From a virus, in the IMG/VR virus record IMGVR_UViG_3300049893_001527, positions 1 to 61,641 of that record: a DNA stretch of 61,641 nucleotides; one strand, written 5' to 3'. The position numbers and the translations under genes were made by a program. This document shows, piece after piece, positions 13,418 through 47,114 of the stretch (within the stretch, counting starts at the first letter, position 1; each line of letters begins with the position of its first letter). The notes beneath the pieces were generated by a model. The model was not told where the DNA came from. It saw only the letters and a list, made by a program, of their open reading frames with translations, and did not search any database.

Positions 13418-15298
13418 ATGGCTAAAACATTACAAGACCAAATAGACGAGGGCTTCAAGCCTAAGCCAGTTAATGTCAAATTTAGCTGGTTAGATCATAA
13501 TGATTTAGCTAAGGCAGAAGAAAAGCATGAGTCCCTAGAAAAGTCGGTGCTGAATTCTTTGGATTCCCTTAAAAGAGGGGAAAAGATACACCGTATAGCG
13601 GTAATGGAAGACCCTAGTAATAGGAATTTCCAAACCTTATGGAAGCCAAAGCGTAATTTATTACCGGACGATGTTTTAAAAAAAATATCGGTACAGGACT
13701 CATTGGTTTCAGCTATTTGGATGGCTAGGGCCAACCATTTAACGGTATTTGGTAGAGAATTACAAGACCGTTTTAGTTTAGGTTATATATTAATGCCTCG
13801 TAAGGGGGTTATGGAAAAGGCTACGGATTCTCAAAAGGAAGAATTGCGTAGTAGAATTAAAAATGCGACTAAGTTGTTGGGGACTTGTGGGTTTACCGAA
13901 GGTTGGTCTAGGGGAGAACAAGAATCCCTACCGGTTTATTTATATAAACAAGCCAAAAATGCATTAATCAATGGTCGATTTGCTACAGAAATCATATATA
14001 CCCGTAAAATGGATGGAACTAGGGTATTTCATGCTTTTAGGTCAGTTGATGCAGGTACAATATATAAAACGGTTCCTAAACTAGAAGCAATAGACCGTAT
14101 TAGACAACAAGCATTGAGTCATTTGCAATCCATCAAGAATGAAAAGTTACAGCCAGAACGTTTCCAAAATGATGAATATGCCTACGTTGAAGTAATAGAA
14201 AACCAACCTAGACAAGCGTTTACGGAAGACGAAATGGTCGTTTGGGATATGTATCCAGTTACGGACTACGAACTTAACGGCTACCCTATTACACCAATTG
14301 ATACAGTAATAAATGATGTAGTAACACACATTAATATAACTACTTATAATAAGTTATATTTCCAAAATGGTCGTGCCGCTAGGGGTATGATTGTAATCAA
14401 GTCTACAGACATATCACCTGATTTGATTACTCAGATCCGTAATCACATGACGGCTAGCATTAATAATGTAAATAACTCTTTCCGAGTACCTGTATTTGGT
14501 GTAGACGTAGAGGATGAAATTAGTTGGCAACCATTTGAGGGCCAAGGTGCCCGGGACATGGAATTCGAGTATTTGTATGATAATAATGCTAGGGCAATAT
14601 TGTCGGCTTTCCAAATTTCCCCTGACGAATTACCGGGTTACAGCCATTTGTCTAAAGGAACCAATAACCAAGCTTTATCAGAATCAAGCAACGAATACAA
14701 AATGGAAGCGGCCCGGGACGTAGGTATTAGACCGCTTTTGCTAAAGTTCCAAGATTTCTTTAATGAAGTAATTATACCTTTAATTGACCCAGTTTTGGCT
14801 CAATTGTGTGTATTGAAGTTTGCTGGCTTGGATGCGGATACAGCCGAAAAGGAATCAACTAGGCTAGCTCAAGACCAACAACTACACATGGATTACGATG
14901 AAATCCGCCTACACGTTGAAAAGGAGCCAGTAGGACAAGAATGGGGTGGTAGGTTCCCACTAAATGCAGCTTATCAAGCTGTTTTGGATAAATATTGGAC
15001 TGTAGGACAAATAAAAGAACACTTCTTTGGTCAAGTGGGGGCCAGCAAAGACCCTAAGTGGGATTATGTAAGAGATCCATTCTGGTTCCAATACCAACAA
15101 CTATTACAAGCTAAAGAGCAAATGGCCCAACAGCAACAACAACAACAAATGCAACAGCAACAAATGCAACAGCCACCCGAAGGTGAGGGGGACCAACCAC
15201 CCGAAGGTGAGGGCGAAGGCCAACCACCCGAGGGTGAATCAGAAATAGCCCAAAAAGCAGACCAAGTGGCACAATTATTAGGTGGAAACAATGGCTAA
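13418..15298 (+). CDS. Portal protein
   Basis: 626 residues. The portal core is seen in the stem/wing region: VINDVVTHINITTYNKLYFQNGRAARG, then EFEYLYDNNARAILSAFQISPDELPGY, and the later RPLLLKFQDFFNEVIIPLID. The C-terminus has a polyglutamine/methionine run followed by three PPEGEG-type repeats, a disordered tail. It forms the dodecameric ring at one capsid vertex through which terminase packages DNA. Starts 2 nt after the previous gene; overlaps the protease gene by 8 nt. Confidence 0.92.
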   Translation: MAKTLQDQIDEGFKPKPVNVKFSWLDHNDLAKAEEKHESLEKSVLNSLDSLKRGEKIHRIAVMEDPSNRNFQTLWKPKRNLLPDDVLKKISVQDSLVSAIWMARANHLTVFGRELQDRFSLGYILMPRKGVMEKATDSQKEELRSRIKNATKLLGTCGFTEGWSRGEQESLPVYLYKQAKNALINGRFATEIIYTRKMDGTRVFHAFRSVDAGTIYKTVPKLEAIDRIRQQALSHLQSIKNEKLQPERFQNDEYAYVEVIENQPRQAFTEDEMVVWDMYPVTDYELNGYPITPIDTVINDVVTHINITTYNKLYFQNGRAARGMIVIKSTDISPDLITQIRNHMTASINNVNNSFRVPVFGVDVEDEISWQPFEGQGARDMEFEYLYDNNARAILSAFQISPDELPGYSHLSKGTNNQALSESSNEYKMEAARDVGIRPLLLKFQDFFNEVIIPLIDPVLAQLCVLKFAGLDADTAEKESTRLAQDQQLHMDYDEIRLHVEKEPVGQEWGGRFPLNAAYQAVLDKYWTVGQIKEHFFGQVGASKDPKWDYVRDPFWFQYQQLLQAKEQMAQQQQQQQMQQQQMQQPPEGEGDQPPEGEGEGQPPEGESEIAQKADQVAQLLGGNNG

Positions 15299-17471
15299 AG
15301 CAATGGTAATAGACGGTATTGCGGCATCTGAGGCTATAGATAGCTCTGGTGAAATATTGTCTGTTGCCGGATTAGATATTTCTGATTTGGAAGCTGGGCT
15401 AGGAGTATTAAATTACGAACACCGTTCCGAAAAGGATGGTGGTGCATCTAGCAATGATATTATTGGGGCTATTACATACGCCAAGAAAATATTTAAACCA
15501 GAAGATTGTGAAAATCCCCGTCAAAGGATGTATTGGGATAAAATTGAATTACCGTTCGTTTATATTACGGCAGAACTATTTAATGGGGAAGATCATACCG
15601 GGGCCAAAGCCGCCGCTAGTTTAATTAGGTATTACCACCGTAGACACCTACCAATATTAATGCGTTTTAGTATTGAGGGTTCTACAATAGAACGCGAAGG
15701 TAATTTCTTAAAAAGAAGTGTAGCCCGTAGAGTAGCGGCTACCCTAAAGCCTTGTAATAGAAGCTGCATTTCGGGTGTTTTGGAAGATGCAGATGACGTT
15801 AGTTCTTTAGATGAATTGGTTAGGGGGGATTTGCCAACTACCCAAATCAAAAAGTCGGTAGTATATGAATTTGATGCCTTGGTAAAGGATGAAGCCGAAC
15901 TATTGGCCGATAAGTTGGAAAACTTCAAGGAAATCAAATACTTAAACGAGCTACTAATGAAATACAATGTAGCTCCAACACAACTTAATGGTTATAGTGC
16001 ATTACAAACAGAATGGGTTGACGGGAAATCCAAGAAAAAGAAAAAGTTAATAGATACCTATAAGAAATGGGCCCGTAAGGAACCCCTAGAAAAATTCATA
16101 AACCAAGAACACCCGGACGTACCGGCGGACTTGGTTAAATATTTCCTAGATGGGATAGAATCCTACCATAATGGACAAACCGAGTTATTGTATGCCGCGT
16201 TGCATCAATTGAAGCCAAAGTCTGTTTTGATTAAGAACCTAGGGGATTTGTTGGCAAAATTTAACCAATTAGTTAAAACAGTTGGCCCAACTGAAACCAC
16301 CCCTAAAATCCAAACAGACAAACACGGATTACAGGAATTGTCTAAACCAGACGCAGCGGTCCCCGGTAAAATCAAAGTCCATACTGGCCCCTACGCTGGG
16401 AGTGTGCTACACTACCACGGGCCAGACGACCGGGACGGTCATGTTTGTAGTAAAGACCCTGACTCTCATAAGTTTATAATAGACGAAGACCATAAAGTAG
16501 AAATATTAGAACATCCAATTAAACCAGTATTAAGGCATCAAGTACACGGTATAGAACACGCGGTATTCGATAATAATACACCCGAACAAACTAATTTAAT
16601 ACACGGGTTAATATTGAATCCAGACCATCGAGAATACCAACAAGACCGTAGTTTTAGTTCTGGTGGCCTTATCTTTGATCGTTTGGGACAAATGGTTGAC
16701 CCCGGCAAAAGTATTAATGGCAAGCATATTAATCCGTTGACCGGTAAGGCTGTATTTATTAAATCTGATTGGATATCTGATTGGACAGATCCTATTATGG
16801 ATGATTTAAATAGGGTTGCAGCAACTTTGCCAATACCTAAAGCTGAACAAATACACCATGACGCAGCGCATCATTTTTGGGGTACTGGTGCATTGTATCC
16901 AACCTTAACCGCTTTTAAACATCCAGATCATAATTATGTTTCAAAACACTTTGCTGCTTCCGAATTTGTGCCCGGTGAAGAATTGTTTTCCGCAGAACGC
17001 ACACCAGAATTCCAAAATTGGAGATGGAAACCCGAAAACGATGAACTATTAAAGCGTCATATGGTATCTGAAATGATAATGGGGAACACAGATCGTCATG
17101 CCGGTAACATGATTTGGGACAAGGACAGTCAAAAGCTGCATATGATTGATAACGGCTTTATGAATGAACACGCATTATCAACACCGTATTTCTTGCAATT
17201 ATCGGAAATGGACCATGGTTTGCCACAATCAATTAGACAATGGTTACACCAATTAGATTTTAGCAAATTAGATAAATTATTACAAGACCGCCAACTACCA
17301 GACCATTTAAGACGCCAAGTAATGCACCATGCATTGAACGTACAATCCAAGGCAATGCAACCAGTACCTTTGTTATGGCGGGACTTGGTAAATCCAAGAT
17401 TTGACCCCGGTGTGGCGCAGCCAACCAAAGAATCAACCCCTGACGATAGACCATTTAAAAGAAGAAGATAA
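15291..17471 (+). CDS. Prohead protease fused to a HipA/PI3K-like kinase domain
   Basis: 726 residues from the ATG at 15291 (AGGTGG site just upstream). The N-terminal 180 residues match prohead serine proteases: DSSGEILSVAG, a catalytic-type His in LNYEHRSEK (about residue 44), IIGAITYAKKIF, and MRFSIEGS with the likely Ser (about 127). A charged linker follows. The C-terminal 250 residues look like an atypical kinase: VFIKSDW (about 488, possible ATP lysine), MGNTDRHAGNMIWD (about 597, catalytic loop DRHxxN) and MIDNG (about 618, metal-binding Asp). Protease position after portal is canonical; the fused kinase is not. Confidence 0.8.
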   Translation: MAKAMVIDGIAASEAIDSSGEILSVAGLDISDLEAGLGVLNYEHRSEKDGGASSNDIIGAITYAKKIFKPEDCENPRQRMYWDKIELPFVYITAELFNGEDHTGAKAAASLIRYYHRRHLPILMRFSIEGSTIEREGNFLKRSVARRVAATLKPCNRSCISGVLEDADDVSSLDELVRGDLPTTQIKKSVVYEFDALVKDEAELLADKLENFKEIKYLNELLMKYNVAPTQLNGYSALQTEWVDGKSKKKKKLIDTYKKWARKEPLEKFINQEHPDVPADLVKYFLDGIESYHNGQTELLYAALHQLKPKSVLIKNLGDLLAKFNQLVKTVGPTETTPKIQTDKHGLQELSKPDAAVPGKIKVHTGPYAGSVLHYHGPDDRDGHVCSKDPDSHKFIIDEDHKVEILEHPIKPVLRHQVHGIEHAVFDNNTPEQTNLIHGLILNPDHREYQQDRSFSSGGLIFDRLGQMVDPGKSINGKHINPLTGKAVFIKSDWISDWTDPIMDDLNRVAATLPIPKAEQIHHDAAHHFWGTGALYPTLTAFKHPDHNYVSKHFAASEFVPGEELFSAERTPEFQNWRWKPENDELLKRHMVSEMIMGNTDRHAGNMIWDKDSQKLHMIDNGFMNEHALSTPYFLQLSEMDHGLPQSIRQWLHQLDFSKLDKLLQDRQLPDHLRRQVMHHALNVQSKAMQPVPLLWRDLVNPRFDPGVAQPTKESTPDDRPFKRRR

Positions 17472-24075: not shown

Positions 24076-24110
24076 CGGGGTGGGTCAGAAATGACTCACC
24101 CCGTTTTTTT
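24076..24110 (+). terminator. Rho-independent terminator after the capsid gene
   Basis: A 12-bp stem (one G-T pair) with a GAAA tetraloop, 24076-24087 with 24092-24103, followed by seven T residues. It separates the head operon from thyX. Confidence 0.95.
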
Positions 24111-24120
24111 ATTTACGTGG

Positions 24121-24149
24121 TTGACTCCTAAATCGACTTGTGGTAAGGT
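24121..24149 (+). promoter_or_regulatory. Sigma70-like promoter before thyX
   Basis: TTGACT (24121-24126), 17-nt spacer ending in TGG, then TAAGGT (24144-24149). It follows the terminator directly. The same layout, TTGACA-N17-TAGGGT with TGG before the -10, occurs at 44401 and 48879. Confidence 0.65.
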
Positions 24150-24168
24150 AGTCTACAAAGGAGCCCAA

Positions 24169-24798
24169 ATGCGTATCGTCAAACAATCAGCAGAACTCAT
24201 AGGTTTAATGCGGCCAACAGATACATTATCCCCCCCGGGTAAGTTAATAGAGAGGGCGGGTAGGGTTTGTTGGAAATCAGAAGATAGGATTACAGAAGAC
24301 TCACACGTAGATTTCGTGGACCGTATTTGTAATCAATATGGCCATGAATCGGTAGCAGAACATTCTTCTGCTACATTTCATTTAGTCACCAATAGAGCAA
24401 TAGCTAATGAATTGGTAAGACACCGGATAGCGGCTTACAGCCAAGAATCTACTAGGTATTGTAATTACAGCAAGGACAAGTTTGGTGGAGTAGCATTTAT
24501 TGAGCCAGAATTCTCTAACCAAGAATTAAGGGATCGTTGGTATAATTTAATGGTTCAAATCGAGCAACAATATTTATCAATGGTGCAACAAGGGGTCAAG
24601 CCAGAAGTAGCCCGAGACATATTACCGTTATGTTTAAAGACGGAAATAGTGGCTACAATGAATTTTAGAAGCTGGAAGCACGTTATAGAATTAAGGACTT
24701 CACCTAAAGCGCATTATCAAATACAGGAACTTATTGGATTAGTTAAGAAAGATTTGTTAAAGGTTGCGCCAGAATACTTTGGGACAAAGGTTAATTAA
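24169..24798 (+). CDS. thyX: Flavin-dependent thymidylate synthase
   Basis: 209 residues from the ATG at 24169, with AAGGAG at 24158-24163. The ThyX signature is intact: RHRIAAYSQESTRYCNYS, matching RHRxxSxxxxSxR with a serine shift, preceded by SVAEHSSATFHL and followed by LPLCLKTEIVATMNFRSWKHVIELR. It makes dTMP from dUMP using FAD, NADPH and methylenetetrahydrofolate. It forms a nucleotide module with the dNMP kinase gene, whose ATG overlaps its stop (TAATG). Confidence 0.95.
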   Translation: MRIVKQSAELIGLMRPTDTLSPPGKLIERAGRVCWKSEDRITEDSHVDFVDRICNQYGHESVAEHSSATFHLVTNRAIANELVRHRIAAYSQESTRYCNYSKDKFGGVAFIEPEFSNQELRDRWYNLMVQIEQQYLSMVQQGVKPEVARDILPLCLKTEIVATMNFRSWKHVIELRTSPKAHYQIQELIGLVKKDLLKVAPEYFGTKVN

Positions 24799-25550
24799 TG
24801 TATCCTATTATAATGATATATGGCAACGCTGGTAGTGGCAAGGATTATATTGCGGCAAAAATAGAATCAGACCCGGGATTTCCGTATGTGGCTAAAATTG
24901 CATTGGCAGACCCTATTAAAGAATTGCTGGTCAGGGTTGTTGATTGGCCAGAACATAGTGACCTATTTGGCCCATCGTCTGAGCGTTCTAATGTTAGATT
25001 TTGGAAATCCGACAAGGCGACTAGAACCAAAACGCTTATGGAGAGGGAAGCGCCAATTGTGGTAAATAAATATATAGAACAGCTAGAAATCGGTCGGAAT
25101 AGAACACAAAAACATATAGACGATTTATTAGCTATATGTTCTAAAATAATATATCGTAAAGCTGGCACTTCTGCTAGAATGGCTTTGCAGGAAGTAGGGG
25201 ATTGGGGTAGGGCTATTCATCCTGAACTTTGGATTAGACTAACCCTACAACGAGCAGAAGAACTATTAAGTAATAGTCTAATTAGAACAGACACCGTTAT
25301 AATAACTGACGGGCGTTACAAAAATGAAGTGTTGGCCATTAAAAAGATTGGCGGGGCAGTTATTAAAGTAAATCCCTTAAATAAGGATTTCGTGCCCGAC
25401 AAACACTCAAGCGAACAAGACCAAGTAAACATACCGGATTTCTGGTTTGATACTGTTTTGAATAATTCCAATGATATGCCAGCCTTACACCGGTTTTTAA
25501 ATAAATACCAATGCAGACCATCAATCAATTTGTTCCTGCCACCCACTTAG
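24798..25550 (+). CDS. Deoxynucleoside monophosphate kinase, T4 gp1-like
   Basis: 250 residues. A P-loop GNAGSGKD is at residues 9-16; later VGDWGRAIHPELWIRLTLQRAE and ITDGRYKNEVLAIKKIGGAVIKV match the dNMP-kinase family seen in T4-type phages (base-selecting and Walker B-like segments, with the DxR and RxxNE pattern). It phosphorylates dTMP and other dNMPs, next step after ThyX. The end overlaps the next gene by 40 nt. Confidence 0.85.
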   Translation: MYPIIMIYGNAGSGKDYIAAKIESDPGFPYVAKIALADPIKELLVRVVDWPEHSDLFGPSSERSNVRFWKSDKATRTKTLMEREAPIVVNKYIEQLEIGRNRTQKHIDDLLAICSKIIYRKAGTSARMALQEVGDWGRAIHPELWIRLTLQRAEELLSNSLIRTDTVIITDGRYKNEVLAIKKIGGAVIKVNPLNKDFVPDKHSSEQDQVNIPDFWFDTVLNNSNDMPALHRFLNKYQCRPSINLFLPPT

Positions 25551-27346: not shown

Positions 27347-28189
27347 ATGGCTGATTATACAGATTCCGCACTATTAGACCAATCGTTATATCCAGAAAAC
27401 GCTATAGATGCCCAAGAATGGTCTAGGGTTGAACCATTATTGACGGCAGAACAGCTTAAACGTCGGTTTTTGTGGGGTATACCATTGGTTTCCCCTATTC
27501 GTGACCCTATTACGGGTAAAGCCGATACAATGACTAGTGAAGACCTTAAAGAATTTGTTTTAAGGGCTGTTGCACAAGTTGAACTAGACACGGGGATAGA
27601 CGTATTCCCGGTACAACGCTCCGAAGGCCAAGATTTTGACCGTAACCTATTAGTACAATACGGCCACCTTAGATTAGACCATCGTCCTATTGTATCAATA
27701 GATAAGTTATCTATTAAACCAGCCAGCGGGGACGATATTTATATAGTACCGCCAGAATGGATTGACCACAAGTATTTCACCAAGGGGTTATTGCACATAA
27801 TCCCACTAATGCCAGCTATTAATTCTGGTGTTATCCCTACTGGTCGTAGTGGTGGTACTATGTTTTTGCATATTATTGCTGGTGGTAGACAATGGGTTCC
27901 TAGTTATTGGAATATAGAATACACGACTGGCTTCAAAGACGGTATTTTGCCTAAAGTATTAAATGAATTAATTGGTTGTTATGCGGCTGTTGACATATTG
28001 ACTGTATTGCAATCAACTTATAGGTCTACTAGCTATTCTCTAGGGGTTGACGGTATTAGCCAATCTGGTTCTACACCGGGTCCAAATATGTTCGACCCTA
28101 GGATTAAGCAATTAGAACTCAAGAAAAAGCAATTGCTAGGTAAGTTTAAAGCGTTATTCCAAAATAAATTCATAGTGAGTAATATTTAA
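27347..28189 (+). CDS. Head-tail adaptor-like protein
   Basis: 280 residues. The segment LKEFVLRAVAQVELDTGIDVFPVQ, followed by beta strands and the ending YRSTSYSLGVDGISQSGSTPG with a lysine-rich helix, fits the phage head-tail connector (adaptor) proteins that contact the portal. Gene position after the small virion gene supports this. Its stop overlaps the next ATG. Confidence 0.65.
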   Translation: MADYTDSALLDQSLYPENAIDAQEWSRVEPLLTAEQLKRRFLWGIPLVSPIRDPITGKADTMTSEDLKEFVLRAVAQVELDTGIDVFPVQRSEGQDFDRNLLVQYGHLRLDHRPIVSIDKLSIKPASGDDIYIVPPEWIDHKYFTKGLLHIIPLMPAINSGVIPTGRSGGTMFLHIIAGGRQWVPSYWNIEYTTGFKDGILPKVLNELIGCYAAVDILTVLQSTYRSTSYSLGVDGISQSGSTPGPNMFDPRIKQLELKKKQLLGKFKALFQNKFIVSNI

Positions 28190-30096
28190 TGGCAGACCAA
28201 TCAGAACCACTAGAAAAAGCTGCGCCGCACATAGCGGCTTTCTTGGCTGCTGCCCAATTATTTACCGCCAAACCACACAAAACGGAACCGGCGGCTCCAA
28301 AAGTTGCAGCTACTAAGCAATCAGCTAAATCTACCCCCAAGCCCCTACCCTATGGGCCACACTTGCCGACTACTAACTCCGAGCGGGTAGCCCAGCCGTT
28401 CCCTGTATCCGCCGAACTGACCCAAGGCTTGCCGTCTGAAATGCATCCTATCATGCATTTGGAGTCCCGTAACGGACAAAACCAAAACCACGCTGTAGTA
28501 AATAATAATAAATGGCAAACAGCGCACGGACACCTAGGTTTTATGCCGTTTACCGCCCACGAACGTTATATGAAAAATCCGTCTATGCGGACAATGTTCC
28601 CGGGTTTGGAATCGGCAGATAAGTTTTATAAAACATTTACTACTAATGTTAATTTTTATAATACTTTAGCATATTTACATTGGGATTATTTAGGGAAGCG
28701 TTTAGGTAATAATTTGTCAAGAATGGCTTATGGTTGGCGTTTGGGCGAGGGGGCAGCTAAGAAAGCCGATGACCAAACAGCGCAATCCCATTCTTATGTA
28801 AAAGGATATCACGCCCATGCCCAAAATATTCAACCTCAACCAACGGTTACCAAACAAGCGCCTATTAAGAAATCTGAACCAATAGATGAATTTGCAGTTA
28901 AGTTTAAACAATGGATTTATAAAAAGCGCAAAAAGCTAAAGAAATCCGCTACTTACGATAATCTTATGGGTGATATTACGGATTTAGACCGTAAGATGGC
29001 CCGTAAGATGATTGGTAATGAAATATTAGATACACCAGAATTCAAGTCTGCTAGGTTTTTGGCTAAGGAATCCACCCCTAAAGCCAATCGCCTACAAGAC
29101 GCTTTGGCCATTTACGAACACAACCACATATTAGCTGCTTTGTATGCTTATGGGCTGCCTACCAACGATGAATTTGTGGCTAAAATTCAATCAATTATGC
29201 AATTGAGGGTAGGAGAACTAACTAAGGCTGCCGCCGAATACCAAGTCAAGCCCTTAAACATAGAATCCCGCGAAATCGCTGAATACCTACAAGAATCCTT
29301 TAATACTGGCCAATTTGAATCAGTACACTTAAAGGGTAAATATAATGAAGGTTCTATGATTGTAGTTAACAATAGAACACACAACAAATGGCTATTAAAG
29401 CCAGATCAACCACACAACTCGCCAGCTTCCGGGGTAGATCAAGAACCCATTGGGCAATCTCGTAGGGAAGTAATTAATTCCAAGGTAGCTGAACTATTAG
29501 GGATAGGGAATTTCGTAGTTAGTTCAGACTTGGTAGATATAAATGGAAAAGAATATGCTGCGATGGAATTCTTCAATTCCGATTATTCTGGTTTACACAC
29601 AAGAATGACCAATGGTGAAGATATAAAGAACATATTAGAGCCATATAGGGCCAGCGGGTTGTTATTTAAGTGGGCCTTTATGGATTATATATTAGGTAAT
29701 ACGGATCGGCACGGCATGAACGTAATGGCTGATTCTTACGGTAACATTAAATTAATAGACCATGGAAGTTCATTAGCTGGGGATGAATTTGACCCAGCCA
29801 ATGACCCTAATTCATTTATACCATATTATTTACGAGCATATTCCGTACACGACAACTTTAGGGATTTGTCACCACATGACCGTTATCACAGGTTCCCTAA
29901 AGGCAATTACCAATTAGAGCATGAATTCGCGCAATTTGTTCAAAGTGTAAGTGTGGAAGCTATTTGGCAAGTCCTACATAATTATGGGGCCAAAACCGAA
30001 GCCGTAACGCATCGCGTCAAAGAATTAAAGTCAATTCCACCAGAACACGTATTGAGTTATCTATTGGAAATATGGGCCGGTATAGTGGACCCGTAA
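28189..30096 (+). CDS. Lytic-transglycosylase-like region fused to a HipA/PI3K-like kinase domain
   Basis: 635 residues. After a disordered start, residues about 85-200 resemble a lysozyme/SLT domain: HPIMHLESRNGQNQNHA (a candidate catalytic Glu at about 93), GHLGFMPFTAHERYMKN and MAYGWRLGEG. A lysine-rich linker follows. The C-terminal 250 residues carry an atypical kinase set: KWLLKPDQP (about 399, ATP lysine), YILGNTDRHGMNVMAD (about 500, DRHxxN loop) and KLIDHGSS (about 521, metal Asp). It shares this domain with the protease-kinase protein at 15291-17471. A virion-injected enzyme acting on cell wall and then on a host target is possible but inferred. Confidence 0.68.
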   Translation: MADQSEPLEKAAPHIAAFLAAAQLFTAKPHKTEPAAPKVAATKQSAKSTPKPLPYGPHLPTTNSERVAQPFPVSAELTQGLPSEMHPIMHLESRNGQNQNHAVVNNNKWQTAHGHLGFMPFTAHERYMKNPSMRTMFPGLESADKFYKTFTTNVNFYNTLAYLHWDYLGKRLGNNLSRMAYGWRLGEGAAKKADDQTAQSHSYVKGYHAHAQNIQPQPTVTKQAPIKKSEPIDEFAVKFKQWIYKKRKKLKKSATYDNLMGDITDLDRKMARKMIGNEILDTPEFKSARFLAKESTPKANRLQDALAIYEHNHILAALYAYGLPTNDEFVAKIQSIMQLRVGELTKAAAEYQVKPLNIESREIAEYLQESFNTGQFESVHLKGKYNEGSMIVVNNRTHNKWLLKPDQPHNSPASGVDQEPIGQSRREVINSKVAELLGIGNFVVSSDLVDINGKEYAAMEFFNSDYSGLHTRMTNGEDIKNILEPYRASGLLFKWAFMDYILGNTDRHGMNVMADSYGNIKLIDHGSSLAGDEFDPANDPNSFIPYYLRAYSVHDNFRDLSPHDRYHRFPKGNYQLEHEFAQFVQSVSVEAIWQVLHNYGAKTEAVTHRVKELKSIPPEHVLSYLLEIWAGIVDP

Positions 30097-30120: not shown

Positions 30121-30435
30121 ATGCACGTTGCATCTAATCAATTAAAATTTCAACCTAAAGCCATAGGCCAAATGGGCCCTAACGTTGTTTTGGAATCAGA
30201 AACCAAGGGGGGTTTGTTTATAGTATCTGCTGCTGGCAAGAATGGCCAACTACAAACATTAGGGGTTGGGCCGCATCGCGCGGTCGCAAGGTATATGGCC
30301 CAAAAGGACCATCCAGCAGTTAAGATAACTGAACTATCAAAGTCAGAAGTGTTGTCTAAGGCAGAAATTGAACAAATGTTGCCTAAAGCCTATGAGCTAT
30401 TGGCCAAAATAAAAGAAATAGAATCAAATGGCTAA
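30121..30435 (+). CDS. Hypothetical virion-block protein, 104 residues
   Basis: Begins with a small beta region (GGLFIVSAAGKNGQLQTLGVG) and ends with a helical tail. No family recognised. Overlaps the next gene by 8 nt. Confidence 0.62.
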   Translation: MHVASNQLKFQPKAIGQMGPNVVLESETKGGLFIVSAAGKNGQLQTLGVGPHRAVARYMAQKDHPAVKITELSKSEVLSKAEIEQMLPKAYELLAKIKEIESNG

Positions 30436-31261
30436 TAAAAATACCAAAGGTTACTTGCCCTTAATTGGGCCATTAGACAATGTGGCTTTCGATCACGAAG
30501 CCATAGATGATCTATTGCGTAGCCATGGTATTGAAGTTATACATTACAAAGCGATTAAATGTCCTATTGGGTTAAAAGAGCAATATTCCCCTAGAGGACA
30601 CGTAGACCACAACGATTGTTCCAATGGATTTATTTATAAAGTAGCTGGTGGAGTAACTATTCTATTTAGACAAAATTCAACTAGTGAATCCATAGGCAAT
30701 TTTGCCAACATAGCCAATGCTACCGTACAGGCTAGTTTCCCTAGGTTTTACGATGACTGCACGGATTTTAGCATTAATGAAGAAATAGTATTGCACAAAT
30801 ACGACCGTATTTATTTAAAGAATCCAGTTGGGTTTACGGTAACCACCCATTTATTTCAATCTAATAATACCGGGGTAGAGCGAATGGCTTACCCTATAAT
30901 GTGTGTTGAATACTTAGTGGATTATACCGGTAAGGAATACGTAGTTAACGAAGACTTCAACATAGTAAATGGCAATTTGCAATGGTTACCCAACAAACAA
31001 CCCGCTAGCGATTCTGATACTGGCCAAGGGGCGGTATTGTCAATTAGGTATCGGTATGTGCCATATTGGTATGTTGATTCTTTGCCACACGAAATCCGGG
31101 TGTCTCGTAAAATAAATCAAGTTACTGGTGAGTCCACCCTACACCGAATGCCGCAACAAGTTAACTTAGTAAGAGAACACGTATTTGAAAACGTACAATC
31201 TACAGGTGAATCTCCACGTAATATACCTTTGCCGGAATCCGGTGGATTTGGACCTAGATAA
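30428..31261 (+). CDS. Neck/virion protein with a Cys-His cluster
   Basis: 277 residues. The N-terminal part contains IKCPIGLKEQ, then RGHVDHNDCSNGF, a Cys/His arrangement suited to metal binding, followed by a beta-rich body. Similar C-H-C-NG proteins lie in the neck or tail-completion region of large myoviruses, but I could not name the family. The stop overlaps the next ATG by one base. Confidence 0.65.
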   Translation: MANKNTKGYLPLIGPLDNVAFDHEAIDDLLRSHGIEVIHYKAIKCPIGLKEQYSPRGHVDHNDCSNGFIYKVAGGVTILFRQNSTSESIGNFANIANATVQASFPRFYDDCTDFSINEEIVLHKYDRIYLKNPVGFTVTTHLFQSNNTGVERMAYPIMCVEYLVDYTGKEYVVNEDFNIVNGNLQWLPNKQPASDSDTGQGAVLSIRYRYVPYWYVDSLPHEIRVSRKINQVTGESTLHRMPQQVNLVREHVFENVQSTGESPRNIPLPESGGFGPR

Positions 31262-32103: not shown

Positions 32104-32889
32104 ATGAACATTTTTGTATGTTGGGCCATGGACAGGTTAGCGGATAATGTTGACACTTATTTGGTAGGTGGCAATATTGACGCATTGCGTCAACAATCTC
32201 AAAACATGGAACGTTTTGGGCTAATGGTTAAGCAATGGGTTCAAGCCCACCATGGCAAAAATATATACCAAATGGGGGCCACCGGGGCATTTGAAATACC
32301 TAGTGACCGGGGCCACGAACTACGTAGTTTACACAACAAGTTTGACGAAATCATGCAATCTAACGGGTCTATGGGGGTAGGGTTGGAGCTACCGCAAGCG
32401 GCCCAAGCCTTGCATTACGCGGTGCGTCAAGGTGGTGGGACTATAGCCATGTTCGATGATTCCATGGTGGATGAACCCGAAACCACTAAGGAATCCGAAT
32501 TGTTGGGCTTAACTAAAGCACAAGGAGTGGAGGGGGTTAGAAATGAGGGCAGGGCTGCACCAACCCCTCCCCAACGTGGAAAACAAGAACCAGCCCCTAT
32601 GCCTTCTCCTGATGCTGGTCCAGCTAGTTTAGATCCAAGTGCTCCACCGGCAGAACAACCTGCGGGCCCTTCTGCCGGACCAGAGTCCCCTGAAATCGAA
32701 CCTAATCAACCAGAAGAATCTCCTAGAGAACAAGTAATGGCGGCATTAAAAGAAATAAAAGAAGCTGCGCCAATATTAGAACAAATAAAACAACAATCGC
32801 CAGAAACATATAAAGCGATAATGGATATAGTAGATGCCATGATAACTATGGCAGAGAAAATGTCTGGTGGCGAAAATGTCCCTGCTTAA
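32104..32889 (+). CDS. Hypothetical virion-block protein, possibly leaderless
   Basis: 261 residues if the ATG at 32104 is used; an internal ATG at 32128 is the alternative, and neither has a Shine-Dalgarno site. The first half is helical (NIDALRQQSQNMERFGLMVKQW), the middle is a proline/glutamate-rich spacer and the end is a helical segment (EIKEAAPILEQIKQQSPETYK). Function unknown; it overlaps the next gene start. Confidence 0.62.
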   Translation: MNIFVCWAMDRLADNVDTYLVGGNIDALRQQSQNMERFGLMVKQWVQAHHGKNIYQMGATGAFEIPSDRGHELRSLHNKFDEIMQSNGSMGVGLELPQAAQALHYAVRQGGGTIAMFDDSMVDEPETTKESELLGLTKAQGVEGVRNEGRAAPTPPQRGKQEPAPMPSPDAGPASLDPSAPPAEQPAGPSAGPESPEIEPNQPEESPREQVMAALKEIKEAAPILEQIKQQSPETYKAIMDIVDAMITMAEKMSGGENVPA

Positions 32890-35800
32890 GCGTGTACGAG
32901 AATTAAGTAATTTATTAAAAACCGAAAAGGCAACCGAATACCCGGGTAATCCGGGGTCTACGGGGCACCGTTGGTTAACTAATGGTTTGCCTAAAAACGC
33001 CAATGGTCACCATGCTAATCCGGTGGCGACTAGTGCTAAAGGTGCAGTAGGTACTAATATACACAATAAATTGGGTAATATTAGACGTTTTTTGTCACCT
33101 AATGGTGAGCTTGTAACTACCACTAAGCAATCTGGCGTATTGGGGCCTAACGGCAATATAATAAAGCAACCCAAATTAATCAAAGCCGAAGGTGATCCGG
33201 TAGATGAAGGACAACCACAACCACAACAACAAGGAAAACCAAAAAGAAAGCCCGGCACGGGCGCGCTTTTACCAGTTAGTGATAAGTTGCGTAGAAACGT
33301 TAAAGCTTGGATGCGTAAGAATGGGTTATATATTGATTTAACGCCAGACCAAATCAGGGCAATTCAAAGGGCTGGTGGGGCTCCTATAGTAGCTCAAATG
33401 GCCAACGATCCAACTAAACACAAACAAACGGGCACTAGGCATTGGTGGACCGTTGTTGCGCCCAAAGATAAGATAGAGCAAGTTAGAGAAACATTGAAAC
33501 AATTAAGTCCTACTGTTTCTACGAATTATAGGGGCATAGAGGTTAATCCCGATTTTCCTGTTTTAATTGATGGTGCCGCAGTAGCAACAGACAAAAAAAA
33601 CACAGCAACATATGGTAATTACGTTTTGGGTCCAGACGGGACACCTATAGTTTCGGGTTCACCAGAACAAAGAGTATTTGACAATAATGGCAATTTAAAT
33701 AGACACTCTACGCATTTCAATTGGGATGATTTGGATTATTATTGGAAAAATGGTCGCACTCCTTTAACGCCAGAAGTAATTAAAGAAGGTAAAGTACCTA
33801 ATTTGCCAAAAAGTAAAACAATAGAAGAATCCGATACTTTAGGACCAGAAAACCGTAAAGCTTTAAAGGAGTTTTATATAAATTTACGGGATAAAATACC
33901 AGAACAGGGGCATGAACAGGTAATAGACCAAGTTAATGCCGGGGAAGCCTTAGAGGATGTATTAGAAGGTCATGCTAAACATTTAATTGGTCAACTTGAT
34001 CCAGACTGGCACGCAACCAAGTTATTAGCAAGAGATATAGCGCATGAGCTTCATACTAGAACTCAAAAAGTTTTAGGTTGGGACAAAAAGCCCGAAATCC
34101 CTAAAACCGAAGAACATATTAAAGAGATGTTTCCTTTACGCAAGGAACCTATTACAGAGGAACATTTAAGGGATTTGGATACTATTCCGGGTGGAGTAAA
34201 TAATTACTTTTTGGCTTATGCTAATTCCAAAGGATATAATCCAGAAACGGCTGATTCAGAAAAGCTTGTTCCAGTAAGTCCTTTAACTATTAAAACTAGC
34301 CATAAAGATCCGTCTAAGTTAACTGAATTGGATGCTACGCACTCGGTTGAAAAGTACCAAGGTGATGACAAACATAACCTAAAGGTGCGTAGATTTGACC
34401 ATAGTGATTTATTGTCTCCCGATTTGCGCCAAAAGTTTTATTTGTTTGTGGATGACGTTAAAATAGATGAAAGGGGTGGGAAAGAGCGTTTAAAGAGAGT
34501 TTTCCCACAACGATTAGACGAATTGCCATTGCGTTCTGGCAAAAAATGGTCTAATATATTGGAAAGTAAAGCCCAACCTAATCAAAGGGCTGCCGCCAAG
34601 GTGTTTGTGCGTTTAATACCTAAAGATCCAAATAATCCATATTTACCATTTGAGAAACCATATTGGGCATGGGGGGTAGATGACGACACCCACGTTCCGG
34701 GTGGTGGAGCTATTAATGCCGTAGCTAATTTATCTACGATTAGCCATCCGGGTTGGACGGGGTTTAGTAATCACCAATCCCCATCATTTGACCAACAACA
34801 ATCCCAAGTAGATCGTATTACTAGACGATTATCGGCTGGTCATGGGATAATACATCCTTATGGGCAAGCCTATACTGATAGACATTACGCTAAGGCTGGT
34901 GCAGACGAGGCTGTAAAGCATTATGGTGGACACGGTTATTCCGGTACAATAGATATGCCGGGTCGTTCAGTTAATCCAATTGACATAAAGTTGGATCCTA
35001 GTCTAAAGGACCAACCAGCCATGGCCAATGGGTTTGATTTTGAAAAAGCAATGATGATTGCTTTGTTGCGGCACTCTAAGCACCAATTACGTATTACGAA
35101 ATTATCACCCGGCGCGCATAGGGATTCGCACTTTAAATTATATAGGGACTTGGCAGAACATTTTTCAATGCCTGCTTCTGGTGGCCAACGTGGTACATTA
35201 ATAACAGAAAAACCAAAAGAGCCAGAATACGTACCATATACCGAAGAACATCACCAACAAGCAATGGCAGAACACGAAGCCGTTAGGCCAGACATTTCTT
35301 TGGAAGATACTGAATACGCACTAAATCAAGCACGTTCAGAAAACTGGGATCCAGAAGATATAAAAAACTTAGAAGAAACACATAAGCAAGTATTGGCACA
35401 CCATGAACAAGGTCTTGAGCTAGAAAAACGTTGGAAAGAATCACAAAAGAATGGTGGTAAAATATTATTACAAGGTGGCAGTCCGCAACCTAGCCCCGAT
35501 ATGTCTCCCGAAGAATTAGAATATATTAGTAGTTTGCCAATGCATTTCCCGGGTACAATATATTTGACTAAAGGAATAGAACACGAAGGCGTTAAATCAA
35601 ATAATTTGTTTGGGTCAGTACAGGAATCGACTGGCGTTAGTAGAGGTAAGTCGCCTACAAAGAAAGATACTGGTGGTTCTGTAGAATCTCGAATGTCCAT
35701 TTTGGATCCTTTGGTGGCCGATGAATTGGGAAGATTGGAAACCAATAATACTGGTGAATCAAATGATGCCTATAGAATTAGACAAGGTAATATAAGAGAA

Positions 35801-36070
35801 CAAACAAAATACGCTGAAAAATTACAAAGTTCGGTAGTGGAAATCCAAAAACAACCTAAACCTGCGCCGGTTACTGCCAAACCAGTAGAACGTAAACCGG
35901 GGGAATCTACGATTCCAAAACCAACAATTACGCCTGCACCTCCAACAAACAATAATGGTAATGGTGGTGGAGCGGTGGATCCAAAGAATCCAACCAAAAA
36001 GTCAGAAATCTGGTTTAGATTAGATTCAGCGATAGAGAAACTAGAAAAATCTAGGGGTAAACTTGGGTAA
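32876..36070 (+). CDS. Very large virion-block protein of unknown function
   Basis: 1064 residues from ATG 32876 (a GTG at 32867 would add three). Begins with a basic helix MSLLKRVRELSNLLK, then STGHRWLTNGLPKNANGHH. A globular region at about 130-240 (RRNVKAWMRKNGLYIDLT, GTRHWWTVVAPKDKIEQVRETL) is followed by long Pro/Lys/Glu-rich spacers and a second ordered part near 560-780 (KVFVRLIPKDPNNPYLPFEK, GHGIIHPYGQAYTDRHY). No catalytic set is certain. Size and position suggest an inner-virion or ejected protein. Confidence 0.7.
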   Translation: MSLLKRVRELSNLLKTEKATEYPGNPGSTGHRWLTNGLPKNANGHHANPVATSAKGAVGTNIHNKLGNIRRFLSPNGELVTTTKQSGVLGPNGNIIKQPKLIKAEGDPVDEGQPQPQQQGKPKRKPGTGALLPVSDKLRRNVKAWMRKNGLYIDLTPDQIRAIQRAGGAPIVAQMANDPTKHKQTGTRHWWTVVAPKDKIEQVRETLKQLSPTVSTNYRGIEVNPDFPVLIDGAAVATDKKNTATYGNYVLGPDGTPIVSGSPEQRVFDNNGNLNRHSTHFNWDDLDYYWKNGRTPLTPEVIKEGKVPNLPKSKTIEESDTLGPENRKALKEFYINLRDKIPEQGHEQVIDQVNAGEALEDVLEGHAKHLIGQLDPDWHATKLLARDIAHELHTRTQKVLGWDKKPEIPKTEEHIKEMFPLRKEPITEEHLRDLDTIPGGVNNYFLAYANSKGYNPETADSEKLVPVSPLTIKTSHKDPSKLTELDATHSVEKYQGDDKHNLKVRRFDHSDLLSPDLRQKFYLFVDDVKIDERGGKERLKRVFPQRLDELPLRSGKKWSNILESKAQPNQRAAAKVFVRLIPKDPNNPYLPFEKPYWAWGVDDDTHVPGGGAINAVANLSTISHPGWTGFSNHQSPSFDQQQSQVDRITRRLSAGHGIIHPYGQAYTDRHYAKAGADEAVKHYGGHGYSGTIDMPGRSVNPIDIKLDPSLKDQPAMANGFDFEKAMMIALLRHSKHQLRITKLSPGAHRDSHFKLYRDLAEHFSMPASGGQRGTLITEKPKEPEYVPYTEEHHQQAMAEHEAVRPDISLEDTEYALNQARSENWDPEDIKNLEETHKQVLAHHEQGLELEKRWKESQKNGGKILLQGGSPQPSPDMSPEELEYISSLPMHFPGTIYLTKGIEHEGVKSNNLFGSVQESTGVSRGKSPTKKDTGGSVESRMSILDPLVADELGRLETNNTGESNDAYRIRQGNIREQTKYAEKLQSSVVEIQKQPKPAPVTAKPVERKPGESTIPKPTITPAPPTNNNGNGGGAVDPKNPTKKSEIWFRLDSAIEKLEKSRGKLG

Positions 36071-44429: not shown

Positions 44430-44489
44430 GGTTGTGTTGGCGCGGTTGGCAGCAAGAACCGCTACAACGGTGAAAACTGAATAGCAAGT

Positions 44490-44562
44490 GCATTGTGATG
44501 CGATTGGTATCGCAGTTACGCTGTCTACGTAATGAAAGCGGGTTCGATTCCCCTACAATGCG
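44490..44562 (+). tRNA. tRNA-Asp(GTC)
   Basis: Acceptor GCATTGT/ACAATGC, anticodon stem TTACG/CGTAA around loop CTGTCTA. The T stem has one C-C mismatch. No CCA is encoded, as in the rest of the island. Confidence 0.85.
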
Positions 44563-44572
44563 TGTGTTTTAT

Positions 44573-44643
44573 GCGCGTATCGTCTAATGGCAAGACTGGA
44601 GCCTCCAAAACTCTTAACGTGGGTTCGATTCCTACTGCGCGCG
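44573..44643 (+). tRNA. tRNA-Trp(CCA)
   Basis: Acceptor GCGCGTA/TGCGCGC, D stem GTCT/AGAC, anticodon loop CTCCAAA, T arm GTGGG-TTCGATT-CCTAC. Confidence 0.85.
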
Positions 44644-44764
44644 TTTTTGGGTCGTATAAAGTGTAACAAATACGCTCTTAGCAAATGGTTTGACAAATGT
44701 CAAACAAATACTAGGGGAGATATTGGTCGTCCTATTTCGGACAATCCAATCCCAAAATTATTAC

Positions 44765-44848
44765 AGGGGTATAGTCTAATTGGCAAGACAGCGGGCTTTG
44801 ACCCCGCCGGGCGGAAGCCCATTCTAGGTTCGAATCCTAGTACCCCTT
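44765..44848 (+). tRNA. tRNA with anticodon TTG (Gln) but a long variable arm
   Basis: Acceptor AGGGGTA/TACCCCT, D stem GTCT/AGAC, anticodon stem GCGGG/CCCGC with loop CTTTGAC. The A1-U72 pair suits Gln. The variable region is 16 nt with a GGGC-GGAA-GCCC stem, a size normally found only in Leu, Ser and Tyr tRNAs. Confidence 0.8.
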
Positions 44849-44850
44849 TT

Positions 44851-45249
44851 ATGAAACTACTAGTAACTGGTGACCGTAATTATACTAATTATAGTATAGT
44901 ATACGAAACAATTAAAATAATACAACCAACATTAGTAATACATGGTGCTTGTAAAGGGCTGGATTTGTTGGCTGATAAAGCCGCTAAAGCATTATGTATT
45001 AAAACACATTCAGAACCGGCCAAATGGGACACTTATAAGAAAGCGGCTGGTCCTATTAGAAATCGGGTTATGTTGGAAATGAAACCGGATTTAGTAGTTG
45101 GTTTTCACGATAATATAGCGTCATCGAGTGGCACAAAGGATATGTTGACAGCAGCCATCAACGCTGGTACAGTTGTCTGGCTGGTGCAACGAGGATTGTA
45201 TTACCCGCTTAAATCCATACCGGATTTAGTAGACCTAATGGTGGAATAA
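44851..45249 (+). CDS. SLOG-superfamily (DUF2493-like) protein
   Basis: 132 residues from ATG 44851, directly after the tRNA. MKLLVTGDRNYTNYSIVYETI is the YspA/DUF2493 SLOG opening (GDRxYT, nucleotide-type Rossmann), followed by VIHGACKGLDLLADKAAK, NRVMLEMKPDLVVGFHDN and a glycine-rich turn. SLOG domains bind nucleotides or nucleotide-derived signals; some sense ADP-ribose-type ligands in defence. Role here is unknown. Confidence 0.85.
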   Translation: MKLLVTGDRNYTNYSIVYETIKIIQPTLVIHGACKGLDLLADKAAKALCIKTHSEPAKWDTYKKAAGPIRNRVMLEMKPDLVVGFHDNIASSSGTKDMLTAAINAGTVVWLVQRGLYYPLKSIPDLVDLMVE

Positions 45250-45387
45250 ATGTTAGAAATCCATACCTATTATTTGGTTTTTGATTTTGTTCAAAAACCG
45301 GAACTTTCAACTAATGAGGTTTGGTATCAAATTCGATTGATTCATCAAAAGTATCCAGTTAAAATACAAACCGCTAAAGCAGAATAA
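45250..45387 (+). CDS. Small hypothetical protein, 45 residues
   Basis: ATG immediately follows the SLOG stop (TAAATG). Translation MLEIHTYYLVFDFVQKPELS and on to a lysine-rich end. Short and unrecognised, but coupled and bounded by a tRNA. Confidence 0.45.
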   Translation: MLEIHTYYLVFDFVQKPELSTNEVWYQIRLIHQKYPVKIQTAKAE

Positions 45388-45400
45388 ATTTAGCCTATAC

Positions 45401-45474
45401 AGGCTCATAGCTCAACTGGTTAGAGCACCTGCCTTATAAGCGGGAGGTTTCGGGTTCGAGCCCCGATGGGCCTA
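45401..45474 (+). tRNA. tRNA-Ile(TAT)
   Basis: Acceptor AGGCTCA/TGGGCCT, D stem GCTC/GAGC, anticodon stem CCTGC/GCGGG with loop CTTATAA, T stem TCGGG/CCCGA. Reads AUA, common in this genome. Confidence 0.9.
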
Positions 45475-45492
45475 ACAAACACGGAGACACAA

Positions 45493-45678
45493 ATGCTTAA
45501 TACTGGATTAAAGGCTTCTGAATTAATTAAACTTTTGCAGCAGTTTATAAAACAGCATGGTGACCAACAAGTATTTTGTGGTGGTACGGATTATCCGGGT
45601 GGAGTTAAGGATATTTTAGTAAACAAGTATGGCGATGCTTATACCCCTAAAGACGTATTTGTAATACGTCACCATTGA
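45493..45678 (+). CDS. Small hypothetical protein, 61 residues
   Basis: Starts at ATG 45493 behind GGAG. MLNTGLKASELIKLLQQFIKQ helix followed by a beta part (QQVFCGGTDYPGGVKDILV). Many phages carry related small proteins, but I could not name this one. Confidence 0.6.
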   Translation: MLNTGLKASELIKLLQQFIKQHGDQQVFCGGTDYPGGVKDILVNKYGDAYTPKDVFVIRHH

Positions 45679-45783
45679 GCTTGAAAATGAAGCACGCTCT
45701 AGTTTGCGTAGAACCATATAACGACAACATGGTGTATGCCGTTAAGGTGCCATTTATTACACAGTTTACAAAAAGCTTTCAAT

Positions 45784-45867
45784 GGAAAGTTAGCCTAATG
45801 GTAAGGCAAAGGTTTGCTACACCTTGGGGGTGAAAACTCCTTAAGAGTTCGATTCTCTTACTTTCCG
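45784..45867 (+). tRNA. tRNA-Ser(GCT)
   Basis: Acceptor GGAAAGT/ACTTTCC, D stem GCCT/AGGC, anticodon stem AAGGT/ACCTT with loop TTGCTAC, long variable arm, T stem AAGAG/CTCTT. Confidence 0.9.
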
Positions 45868-45868
45868 C

Positions 45869-45953
45869 AGGACTAATATTAGGTATAATTATTATTACGA
45901 TTTAATGACGATTAAATACGAATAATAAGAGGGTTCAAATCCCTTGAAGTCCT
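45869..45953 (+). other. Degenerate tRNA-like element with an AT-rich nested hairpin
   Basis: The ends pair (AGGACT/AGTCCT) and a T arm (GAGGG-TTCAAAT-CCCTT) is intact, but the middle is TTATTATT...AATAATAA enclosing ATTTAAT/ATTAAAT instead of normal D and anticodon arms. Could be a decayed tRNA or an insertion into one. Confidence 0.4.
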
Positions 45954-46019
45954 ATGTCAAGGCTTGGCGCATGATTTGGGCGGTCCCCGAATTAGGCTGG
46001 TTCGATTCCAGTAATCTGA
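45954..46019 (+). other. Degenerate tRNA-like element
   Basis: An intact T arm (GCTGG-TTCGATT-CCAGT) and GTCA/TGAC ends, but the acceptor has mismatches and no convincing anticodon loop could be drawn. Adjacent to the previous degenerate element. Confidence 0.3.
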
Positions 46020-46036
46020 CGTTAGAAGGAAAACAA

Positions 46037-46240
46037 ATGACACAACAAGAAATCCGTACTAAGTATAATGATTTAACCACTAAAATAAATAATTTAATGG
46101 CAGAAGTAAGGTCTTTACAATCCAGTTGTAAGCACCCGAATTACATTGAATACTCACACAGGGATTTTTGGGAAAAAACGTGTAGAGATTGTTGTTTGGT
46201 ATGGGATAATGTGTATAATACGATAGACGAGCCGGATTAA
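46037..46240 (+). CDS. Small coiled-coil zinc protein, family A copy 1
   Basis: 67 residues, ATG 46037 behind AAGGAAAAC. A coiled coil (QEIRTKYNDLTTKINNLMAEV) is followed by a C-x-H and C-x-x-C set (SSCKHPN and CRDCC), likely one zinc site. Related to 46393-46590 and 46624-46821. Its last 10 nt overlap the next tRNA gene. Confidence 0.7.
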   Translation: MTQQEIRTKYNDLTTKINNLMAEVRSLQSSCKHPNYIEYSHRDFWEKTCRDCCLVWDNVYNTIDEPD

Positions 46241-46301
46241 TTAAATGGTATAATACCTGCCTTGTAAACAGGTTTTCTCAGTTCGATTCTGAGATTCGGC
46301 A
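46231..46301 (+). tRNA. tRNA-Thr(TGT)
   Basis: Acceptor GCCGGAT/ATTCGGC, D stem ATTA/TAAT, loop CTTGTAA, T stem CTCAG/CTGAG. Its 5' end lies inside the coding end of the upstream gene. Confidence 0.9.
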
Positions 46302-46305
46302 ATGA

Positions 46306-46379
46306 CTGAGTGTAGCTCAATTTGGTAGAGCACTCGCTTTGGGAGCGAGGGGCTGTAGGTTCAAATCCTATCACTTAGA
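46306..46379 (+). tRNA. tRNA-Pro(TGG), copy 1
   Basis: Acceptor CTGAGTG/CACTTAG with the C1-G72 pair typical of Pro, anticodon stem CTCGC/GCGAG, loop TTTGGGA. Confidence 0.9.
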
Positions 46380-46392
46380 CTAGGGTATTACA

Positions 46393-46590
46393 ATGAAATC
46401 TCCAAAAGAAATCCGGCATGAATTCCAACGATTATGGTCTGAATTAGAATCCGTACATGACCGTATGGATTTACTTAGAAAAGAGTGTTCCCATATCAAT
46501 TGGGTAACAAACGAAACCGCTATAACAGAAGAAGGTCGTAAGGAAAAGTATTGTGATGATTGTGGTGAATACATAGGACAATTAGAATAA
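46393..46590 (+). CDS. Small coiled-coil zinc protein, family A copy 2
   Basis: 65 residues. Coiled coil (HEFQRLWSELESVHDRMDLL) then KECSHIN and YCDDCGEY, the same C-x-H-x-N ... C-x-x-C pattern as the neighbours. Confidence 0.7.
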   Translation: MKSPKEIRHEFQRLWSELESVHDRMDLLRKECSHINWVTNETAITEEGRKEKYCDDCGEYIGQLE

Positions 46591-46623
46591 CATTTAGCCG
46601 AATCACGGCTAAGGGAAATCGTT

Positions 46624-46821: not shown

Positions 46822-46826
46822 ATTAT

Positions 46827-46901: not shown

Positions 46902-46911
46902 CTGTAGTAAT

Positions 46912-46999: not shown

Positions 47000-47002
47000 C
47001 TT

Positions 47003-47073: not shown

Positions 47074-47114
47074 CTTTATGTAGTTGGTTAGTAAAACCTT
47101 AAAGGAAAATCAAA

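What the first reader, a model, noticed from the sequence alone, without database searches (positions are those of the whole stretch)
28189..30096. A second kinase-like domain, fused to a transglycosylase-like region
KWLLKPDQP, GNTDRHGMN and LIDHG in the same order as in the protease fusion indicate a paralogous domain; N-terminally there is a possible SLT-type glutamate domain. Two virion-block proteins sharing one kinase domain suggest an injected kinase system acting early on the host.
Basis: partly seen in the sequence, partly recalled or inferred. Interest (0 to 1): 0.7.

Follow-up and report, generated by a model that had tools for sequence, protein, structure and literature searches.

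The report
Phage cell-wall enzyme fused to kinase
A contractile-tail phage carries, among its particle-building genes, a protein joining a cell-wall-cutting domain to an apparently active kinase resembling type II phosphatidylinositol 4-kinases; the kinase sits in the same place in about 35 phage sequences and is probably, though not yet shown to be, carried in the particle and injected to reprogram the host.

Summary
Confirmed: 28189-30096 encodes 635 aa with an N-terminal lytic-transglycosylase fold (predicted structure matches GH23 enzymes, Z 12.7; Glu92 invariant) and a C-terminal complete PI4K-II-like kinase domain 'K2' (Z 18.2 to PI4KIIbeta). The prohead-protease fusion (15282-17471) carries a homologous but anciently diverged domain 'K1' (profile-profile E 4.5e-8; separate clades in a 60-sequence tree). 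K2 was found in 35 phage records, almost always in one slot of the head-tail connector block, in cassettes with NUDIX, GNAT, ART and transglycosylase domains that are fused or split differently in each phage: the pattern of 'polyvalent' injected effectors. A related phage has the protease and transglycosylase without either kinase, so the kinases are not needed to build that head. The injection idea is therefore well motivated but unproven; the substrate is unknown. The kinase family differs from the described polyvalent-protein kinase. New variant of a known kind; interest about 0.5.

The parts
28189..30096 (+). ORF of 635 aa: lytic-transglycosylase-like domain + helical linker + K2 kinase domain
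   Evidence: orthologous parts in Myxococcus phage Mx1
28390..28848 (+). GH23-like lytic transglycosylase domain (residues about 68-220)
   Evidence: AF2 core pLDDT >90; VIA Z 12.7 to LtgA 5mpq over 132 aa, 3.0 A, Slt70 Z 12.2; homologous domain in the same block of 18 of 35 records
28462..28464 (+). Glu92, putative catalytic acid/base of the transglycosylase (LES motif)
   Evidence: invariant in the 9- and 10-row alignments
28906..29223 (+). helical linker region (residues 240-345) before the kinase, partly conserved in Mx1
29224..30093 (+). K2 kinase domain, PI4K type II-like fold (residues 346-635)
   Evidence: PF00454; AF2 pLDDT 80.6, pTM 0.69; VIA Z 18.2 to PI4KIIbeta 8a5x, 246 aa, 3.3 A
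29398..29400 (+). Lys404, ATP-binding lysine (WLLKP)
   Evidence: 33/33 K2 domains
29467..29469 (+). Glu427 (QSRRE), probable partner of the ATP lysine
   Evidence: 33/33
29704..29721 (+). Catalytic loop DRHGMN (D506, H508, N511)
   Evidence: D506 and N511 33/33, H508 31/33
29755..29766 (+). Metal-binding IDHG (D524)
   Evidence: D524 and G526 33/33
28187..28191 (+). TAATG overlap of the upstream gene's stop with this gene's start, consistent with translational coupling
27347..28189 (+). Upstream neighbour, head-tail connector block (phrog_772), conserved left border of the cassette
30428..31261 (+). Downstream neighbour, virion structural protein (phrog_1004), conserved right border of the cassette
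15282..17471 (+). Prohead protease (N) fused to the K1 kinase domain (C)
   Evidence: protease: phrog_1028 and SPO1-type prohead proteases; K1: PF00454
16377..17468 (+). K1 kinase domain (residues about 366-729; K494, D604, N609, D623)
   Evidence: K494, N609, D623 27/27 and D604 26/27 K1 domains

Best explanation
The gene encodes a short 'polyvalent' effector of a contractile-tail phage. Shown here: a GH23-type lytic transglycosylase domain and a catalytically complete PI4K-II-like kinase domain (K2) in one protein, encoded in the head-tail connector block. Inferred: the protein is incorporated in the particle, at or inside the portal/neck end of the head, and is ejected with or ahead of the DNA; the transglycosylase locally opens peptidoglycan during penetration; the kinase reaches the cytoplasm and phosphorylates host target(s), more likely protein than lipid, to switch the cell to phage production or to blunt a defence before phage genes are expressed. 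The related K1 domain would travel inside the head as a C-terminal extension of the prohead protease, giving a second delivery route.
For: Fold and motifs. Catalytic residues invariant in K2 (33/33) and nearly so in K1; dN/dS about 0.11 between two close K2 relatives. Fixed genomic slot: 35 records; phrog_1004-type gene downstream on the same strand in 28, connector gene in the cassette region in 23. Domain company: NUDIX in 21, transglycosylase in 18, GNAT in 13, K1-type in 10, ART in 2 records, fused and split in many combinations. K1 is fused to the prohead protease in at least 11 phages. G011 (172 kb) has a protease in a 331-aa frame and the transglycosylase but neither kinase, and G019 a protease in a 326-aa frame without K1, so the kinases behave as optional cargo. 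Precedent: packaged ART Alt, polyvalent effectors, and NUDIX fused to portal, MuF or capsid protease (PMC5512222, PMC9503650).
Against: No virion proteomics, activity assay or substrate. Gene position in a late block does not prove packaging. G011 may be incomplete or its kinases diverged beyond the profiles. The transglycosylase may act only in assembly or lysis. Most relatives are metagenomic contigs, some fragmentary.
Confidence: 0.58

Rival explanations
1. Assembly-stage kinase: K1 and K2 phosphorylate phage proteins (scaffold, protease, connectors) to time head maturation and are not injected.
For: K1 is fused to the maturation protease and K2 is encoded between connector genes, with overlapping stop and start codons.
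Against: A related phage has protease and transglycosylase without kinases; several K2-bearing records show no K1; the companion domains (ART, NUDIX, GNAT) are host-modification or counter-defence enzymes rather than assembly factors.
Confidence: 0.2
2. Lipid kinase: K2 phosphorylates phosphatidylinositol or another membrane lipid of the host. Myxobacteria are reported to contain phosphatidylinositol.
For: Best fold match is PI4K type II, clearly above CtkA, HipT and HipA; a myxobacterial phage, Mx1, carries the ortholog; PMC9131029 lists phosphatidylinositol among myxobacterial lipids.
Against: Protein kinases (CtkA, HipT/HipA, mTOR, Fam20) share this fold class and also score; the host of this window is unknown; the fold does not reveal the substrate.
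Confidence: 0.12
3. Pseudokinase used as a structural or protein-binding module.
For: Some K1 domains and two K2 domains lose the His of DRH.
Against: Lys, Glu, Asp, Asn, Asp are invariant in 33/33 K2 domains.
Confidence: 0.07
4. HipA-type toxin of a toxin-antitoxin module.
For: Weak HipA_C hits in 6 of 30 K2 domains; HipT Z 13.1.
Against: No HipA N-terminal domain match in the protein, no Pfam match to an antitoxin in neighbouring genes, fixed connection to virion genes.
Confidence: 0.03

Closest known systems
Myxococcus phage Mx1 WNM70334 'kinase', WNM70333 'NUDIX hydrolase', WNM70322 'putative prohead protease'
   Same: K2 ortholog at 35.5% over 383 aa; the transglycosylase domain lies in WNM70333 (35% over 153 aa); the protease N-terminus is 51% identical and also carries a C-terminal K1-like domain; same gene order.
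   Different: In Mx1 the transglycosylase and kinase are in adjacent genes, the kinase has a GNAT-like N-terminus, and WNM70333 adds GNAT, ART-PolyVal and NUDIX domains, none of which was found in the window's cassette.
Polyvalent proteins (Iyer et al. 2017, PMC5512222)
   Same: Multidomain phage proteins mixing lysozyme/transglycosylase, ART, GNAT and kinase domains, encoded near packaging genes and proposed to be injected.
   Different: Their kinase domain is a protein-kinase type lacking the whole C-terminal subdomain, mainly in Verrucomicrobia/Chlamydia and Bacteroidetes phages; K2 has a complete PI4K-like C-lobe and hits PF00454.
PI4K type II (PI4KIIalpha/beta)
   Same: Predicted fold of the whole kinase domain (Z 18.2, 246 aa, 3.3 A) and the catalytic-loop Asp/Asn and ID-x-G motifs typical of PF00454.
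   Different: About 15% identity; no evidence of a lipid substrate; fused to a transglycosylase in a phage.
GH23 lytic transglycosylases (Slt70, LtgA, MltC; phiKZ gp144)
   Same: Fold and an invariant Glu in an ES motif.
   Different: No Pfam SLT hit; fused to a kinase.
T4 Alt, N4 virion RNAP, T7 protein kinase
   Same: Precedents for packaged host-modifying enzymes (Alt), injected enzymes (N4 RNAP) and a phage kinase of host proteins (T7), as cited in PMC5512222.
   Different: Different folds; the T7 kinase is, to my knowledge, made after infection and not packaged.

Membership tests
PI3/PI4 kinase superfamily (PF00454) | Pfam score above gathering cut-off | tested here: met
   27.6 bits vs 27.1 for the window protein; 26 of 30 K2 domains match at E <= 0.01, best 4e-10
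PI3/PI4 kinase superfamily (PF00454) | ATP lysine, catalytic Asp and Asn, metal-binding Asp conserved | tested here: met
   33/33 K2 domains
PI3/PI4 kinase superfamily (PF00454) | Two-lobe PI4K-like fold | tested here: met
   VIA Z 18.2 to PI4KIIbeta, 246 aa, 3.3 A; next family CtkA 13.6
PI3/PI4 kinase superfamily (PF00454) | Phosphoinositide kinase activity | not testable with these tools
   needs biochemistry; the superfamily also contains protein kinases
Kinase-PolyVal (polyvalent-protein kinase) | Sequence match to the Pfam family | tested here: not met
   no match for the window protein at E <= 1 nor for 30 relatives at E <= 0.01
Kinase-PolyVal (polyvalent-protein kinase) | Loss of the C-terminal kinase subdomain (PMC5512222) | tested here: not met
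   C-lobe helices predicted with high confidence and aligned to PI4KII up to the last residue
Polyvalent (injected, multidomain) proteins | Mosaic of lysozyme, ART, GNAT, NUDIX and kinase domains near head/packaging genes | tested here: met
   the window copy itself has only two domains
Polyvalent (injected, multidomain) proteins | Packaged in the virion and injected | not testable with these tools
   needs virion mass spectrometry
HipA toxins | HipA N-terminal domain and HipB-type antitoxin partner | tested here: not met
   no such Pfam match in the protein or in neighbouring genes
GH23 lytic transglycosylase | Lysozyme-like fold with invariant Glu | tested here: met
GH23 lytic transglycosylase | Recognised by the Pfam SLT family | tested here: not met
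   no hit even at E <= 10: placed by fold and motif only
GH23 lytic transglycosylase | Peptidoglycan cleavage | not testable with these tools
   needs zymogram or muropeptide assay

The most novel reading that the evidence does not exclude
A widespread class of contractile phages injects PI4K-type kinases by two routes, one as cargo of the prohead protease and one coupled to a cell-wall enzyme, and at least one of them phosphorylates a membrane lipid (phosphatidylinositol) of the bacterial host, that is, phages rewire bacterial phosphoinositides.
Probability: 0.07. Interest if true: 0.85.

Novelty: new variant of a known kind. Interest (0 to 1): 0.52.

Why it matters
If the K2/K1 proteins are packaged and active, they form a conserved family of virion-delivered kinases in one fixed slot, distinct from the kinase already described in polyvalent proteins. 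A culturable host/phage pair (M. xanthus and Mx1) would make 'does a phage phosphorylate its host within the first minutes?' directly testable. The conserved slot also gives a simple rule for finding further effector domains: read whatever lies between the connector gene and the phrog_1004-type gene.

Tried and rejected
Single-sequence scan of viral contigs and two-row genome scan found nothing; profiles were needed. Search of plasmids: no match. Scan of 84,980 bacterial/archaeal species genomes with the nine-row profile gave one contig, in a Saccharibacteria MAG, with the full phage gene order, so the domain looks phage-specific within the reach of that pattern scan. A MAFFT alignment of full proteases misplaced the kinase part, as did one of whole mixed-domain proteins; domains were aligned separately afterwards. 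The seven-row K1 profile was too diverse for a pattern scan. I first read the K1 copies beside K2 in G002/G003 as K1 moved from the protease; the tree shows they lie outside the protease-K1 clade, so that idea was dropped. HipA toxin and pseudokinase readings were tested and disfavoured.

Full report
What is there. The ORF at 28189-30096 (635 aa) starts at an ATG that overlaps the stop of the upstream connector-block gene as TAATG. Its left neighbour matches phrog_772 and the gene at 30428 matches phrog_1004 (virion structural protein); the block runs terminase 10505, portal 13418, protease 15282, major capsid protein 22640, then tail genes. The window is a 61,641-bp linear virus record, probably a fragment: its relatives are mostly 120-180 kb.

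The kinase domains. K2 (residues 346-635) and K1 (C-terminal half of the protease fusion) each hit PF00454. BLASTP between them is marginal, but profile-profile alignment gives 94.9% and E 4.5e-8 with DRHxxN and IDxG in register. A tree of 60 domains separates all K2 from all K1 without exception (support 0.99), and within K1 the protease-fused copies form their own clade (0.97). So they are homologous, but old subfamilies rather than a recent duplication. In Mx1 both are present at the same two loci.

Is it an active-type kinase? Among 33 non-redundant K2 domains K404, E427, D506, N511, D524 and G526 never change; H508 changes in two. Among 27 K1 domains K494, N609 and D623 never change and D604 changes once. 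Two close relatives give dN/dS of about 0.11 across the K2 region. The AlphaFold model of residues 240-635 (nine-row alignment, pLDDT 80.6, pTM 0.69) aligns to PI4KIIbeta with Z 18.2 over 246 residues at 3.3 A; the next families are CtkA (13.6), HipT (13.1), PI4KIIIbeta and HipA (about 11). Foldseek agrees (PI4KIIalpha, E 1.7e-5). The fold says 'PI4K-like kinase'; it does not say lipid or protein substrate.

The transglycosylase domain. No Pfam or PDB sequence match, but the predicted fold matches lysozyme-superfamily enzymes, GH23 lytic transglycosylases first (LtgA Z 12.7, Slt70 12.2, MltC 11.6, phiKZ gp144 9.9). Glu92 in an ES motif, the GxxGxxPxTAH stretch (GHLGFMPFTAH in the window) and a YxWRxG motif are conserved across phages. 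Glu92 was not mapped residue by residue onto a solved active site.

Breadth and context. A nine-row K2 profile found 32 IMG/VR loci. With the window, Mx1 and one MAG contig this makes 35 records. A phrog_1004-type gene lies downstream of K2 on the same strand in 28; the connector gene was found in 23. Between them are NUDIX (21), transglycosylase (18), GNAT (13), K1-type (10) and ART (2; the Mx1 one hits ART-PolyVal at E 2.8e-16) domains. The arrangement varies: one 1,512-1,678-aa protein NUDIX-(GNAT)-SLT-K2 in G005-G007; neighbouring ORFs in Mx1, G009, G010; direct SLT-K2 proteins in the window, L078, L079, L080/L081; tandem K1 domains before K2 in G003, L073, L075. These counts are lower bounds because loci were cut at 6-10 kb flanks. 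K1 is fused to the prohead protease in the window, Mx1, G001, G005-G010 and, by shared open frames, G014 and G018. In G002 and G003 the protease carries a GGDEF domain instead.

How it most likely works. Polyvalent proteins were proposed to be virion-packaged, injected mosaics of host-modifying and counter-defence enzymes, with lysozyme domains helping breach the wall (PMC5512222). NUDIX and ART enzymes are likewise inferred to be head-packaged in myoviruses, some fused to the capsid protease or portal (PMC9503650). The present cassette fits that pattern closely. G011 carries the protease (331-aa frame) and the transglycosylase but neither kinase, which argues that the kinases are cargo rather than machinery. 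I therefore favour injection and early phosphorylation of a host target (0.58 overall), with an assembly-stage role as the main rival (0.2). Shown: homology, predicted folds, catalytic residues, slot, domain company. Inferred: packaging, injection, timing, substrate.

Novelty. The Mx1 record already labels its copy 'kinase', and Mx1's genome note does not discuss it (PMC10720576). My searches of open-access papers found no description of PI4K-like kinases in this setting; that is not proof of absence, since subscription papers and preprints are mostly not held. The described polyvalent kinase is a different family. Hence a new variant of a known kind.

Noticed in passing
window 32104-32889; L006:17950-18966: A virion-block gene matches mCpol, the minimal CRISPR polymerase / GGDEF-like cyclase (E 1.4e-4 in the window, below cut-off and with a degenerate motif; E 3.9e-11, above cut-off, in relative G002). 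A cyclase-like gene near tail genes may relate to cyclic-nucleotide defences.
   Followed up: partly
L049:6138-9572 (-), L048:10040-13777 (-), L003:9174-9902: GGDEF domains are fused to the prohead protease C-terminus in two relatives (E 1.5e-8, 5.5e-9), and in Mx1 a GGDEF gene lies just downstream of the protease (E 1.3e-9).
   Followed up: partly
window 44489-53986: 22 tRNA genes and a tmRNA gene (tag DADMALAAA) in the phage.
   Followed up: no
L003:16405-20841 (Mx1 WNM70333): 1,479-aa mosaic with GNAT, ART-PolyVal, NUDIX, transglycosylase and a weak ParB-like match in one protein.
   Followed up: partly
L018:7408-9288, L073:748-4425, L075:1636-5412: Tandem arrays of two or three K1-type kinases in one protein next to K2, outside the protease-K1 clade.
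   Followed up: partly
L050 (CALMSM010000143.1): The cassette occurs on a contig binned in a Saccharibacteria MAG; whether this is a real host link or a binning error was not tested.
   Followed up: no
window 24091-25550: Thymidylate synthase (ThyX-like by motif) and deoxynucleoside monophosphate kinase genes lie directly after the major capsid gene, as in Mx1.
   Followed up: no
L005:4004-4735, L006:17361-17999: GIY-YIG-like homing endonuclease ORFs (by eye) inserted in the connector block of two relatives.
   Followed up: no
window 32867-36070: 1,067-aa virion-block protein with no Pfam match; function unknown.
   Followed up: no
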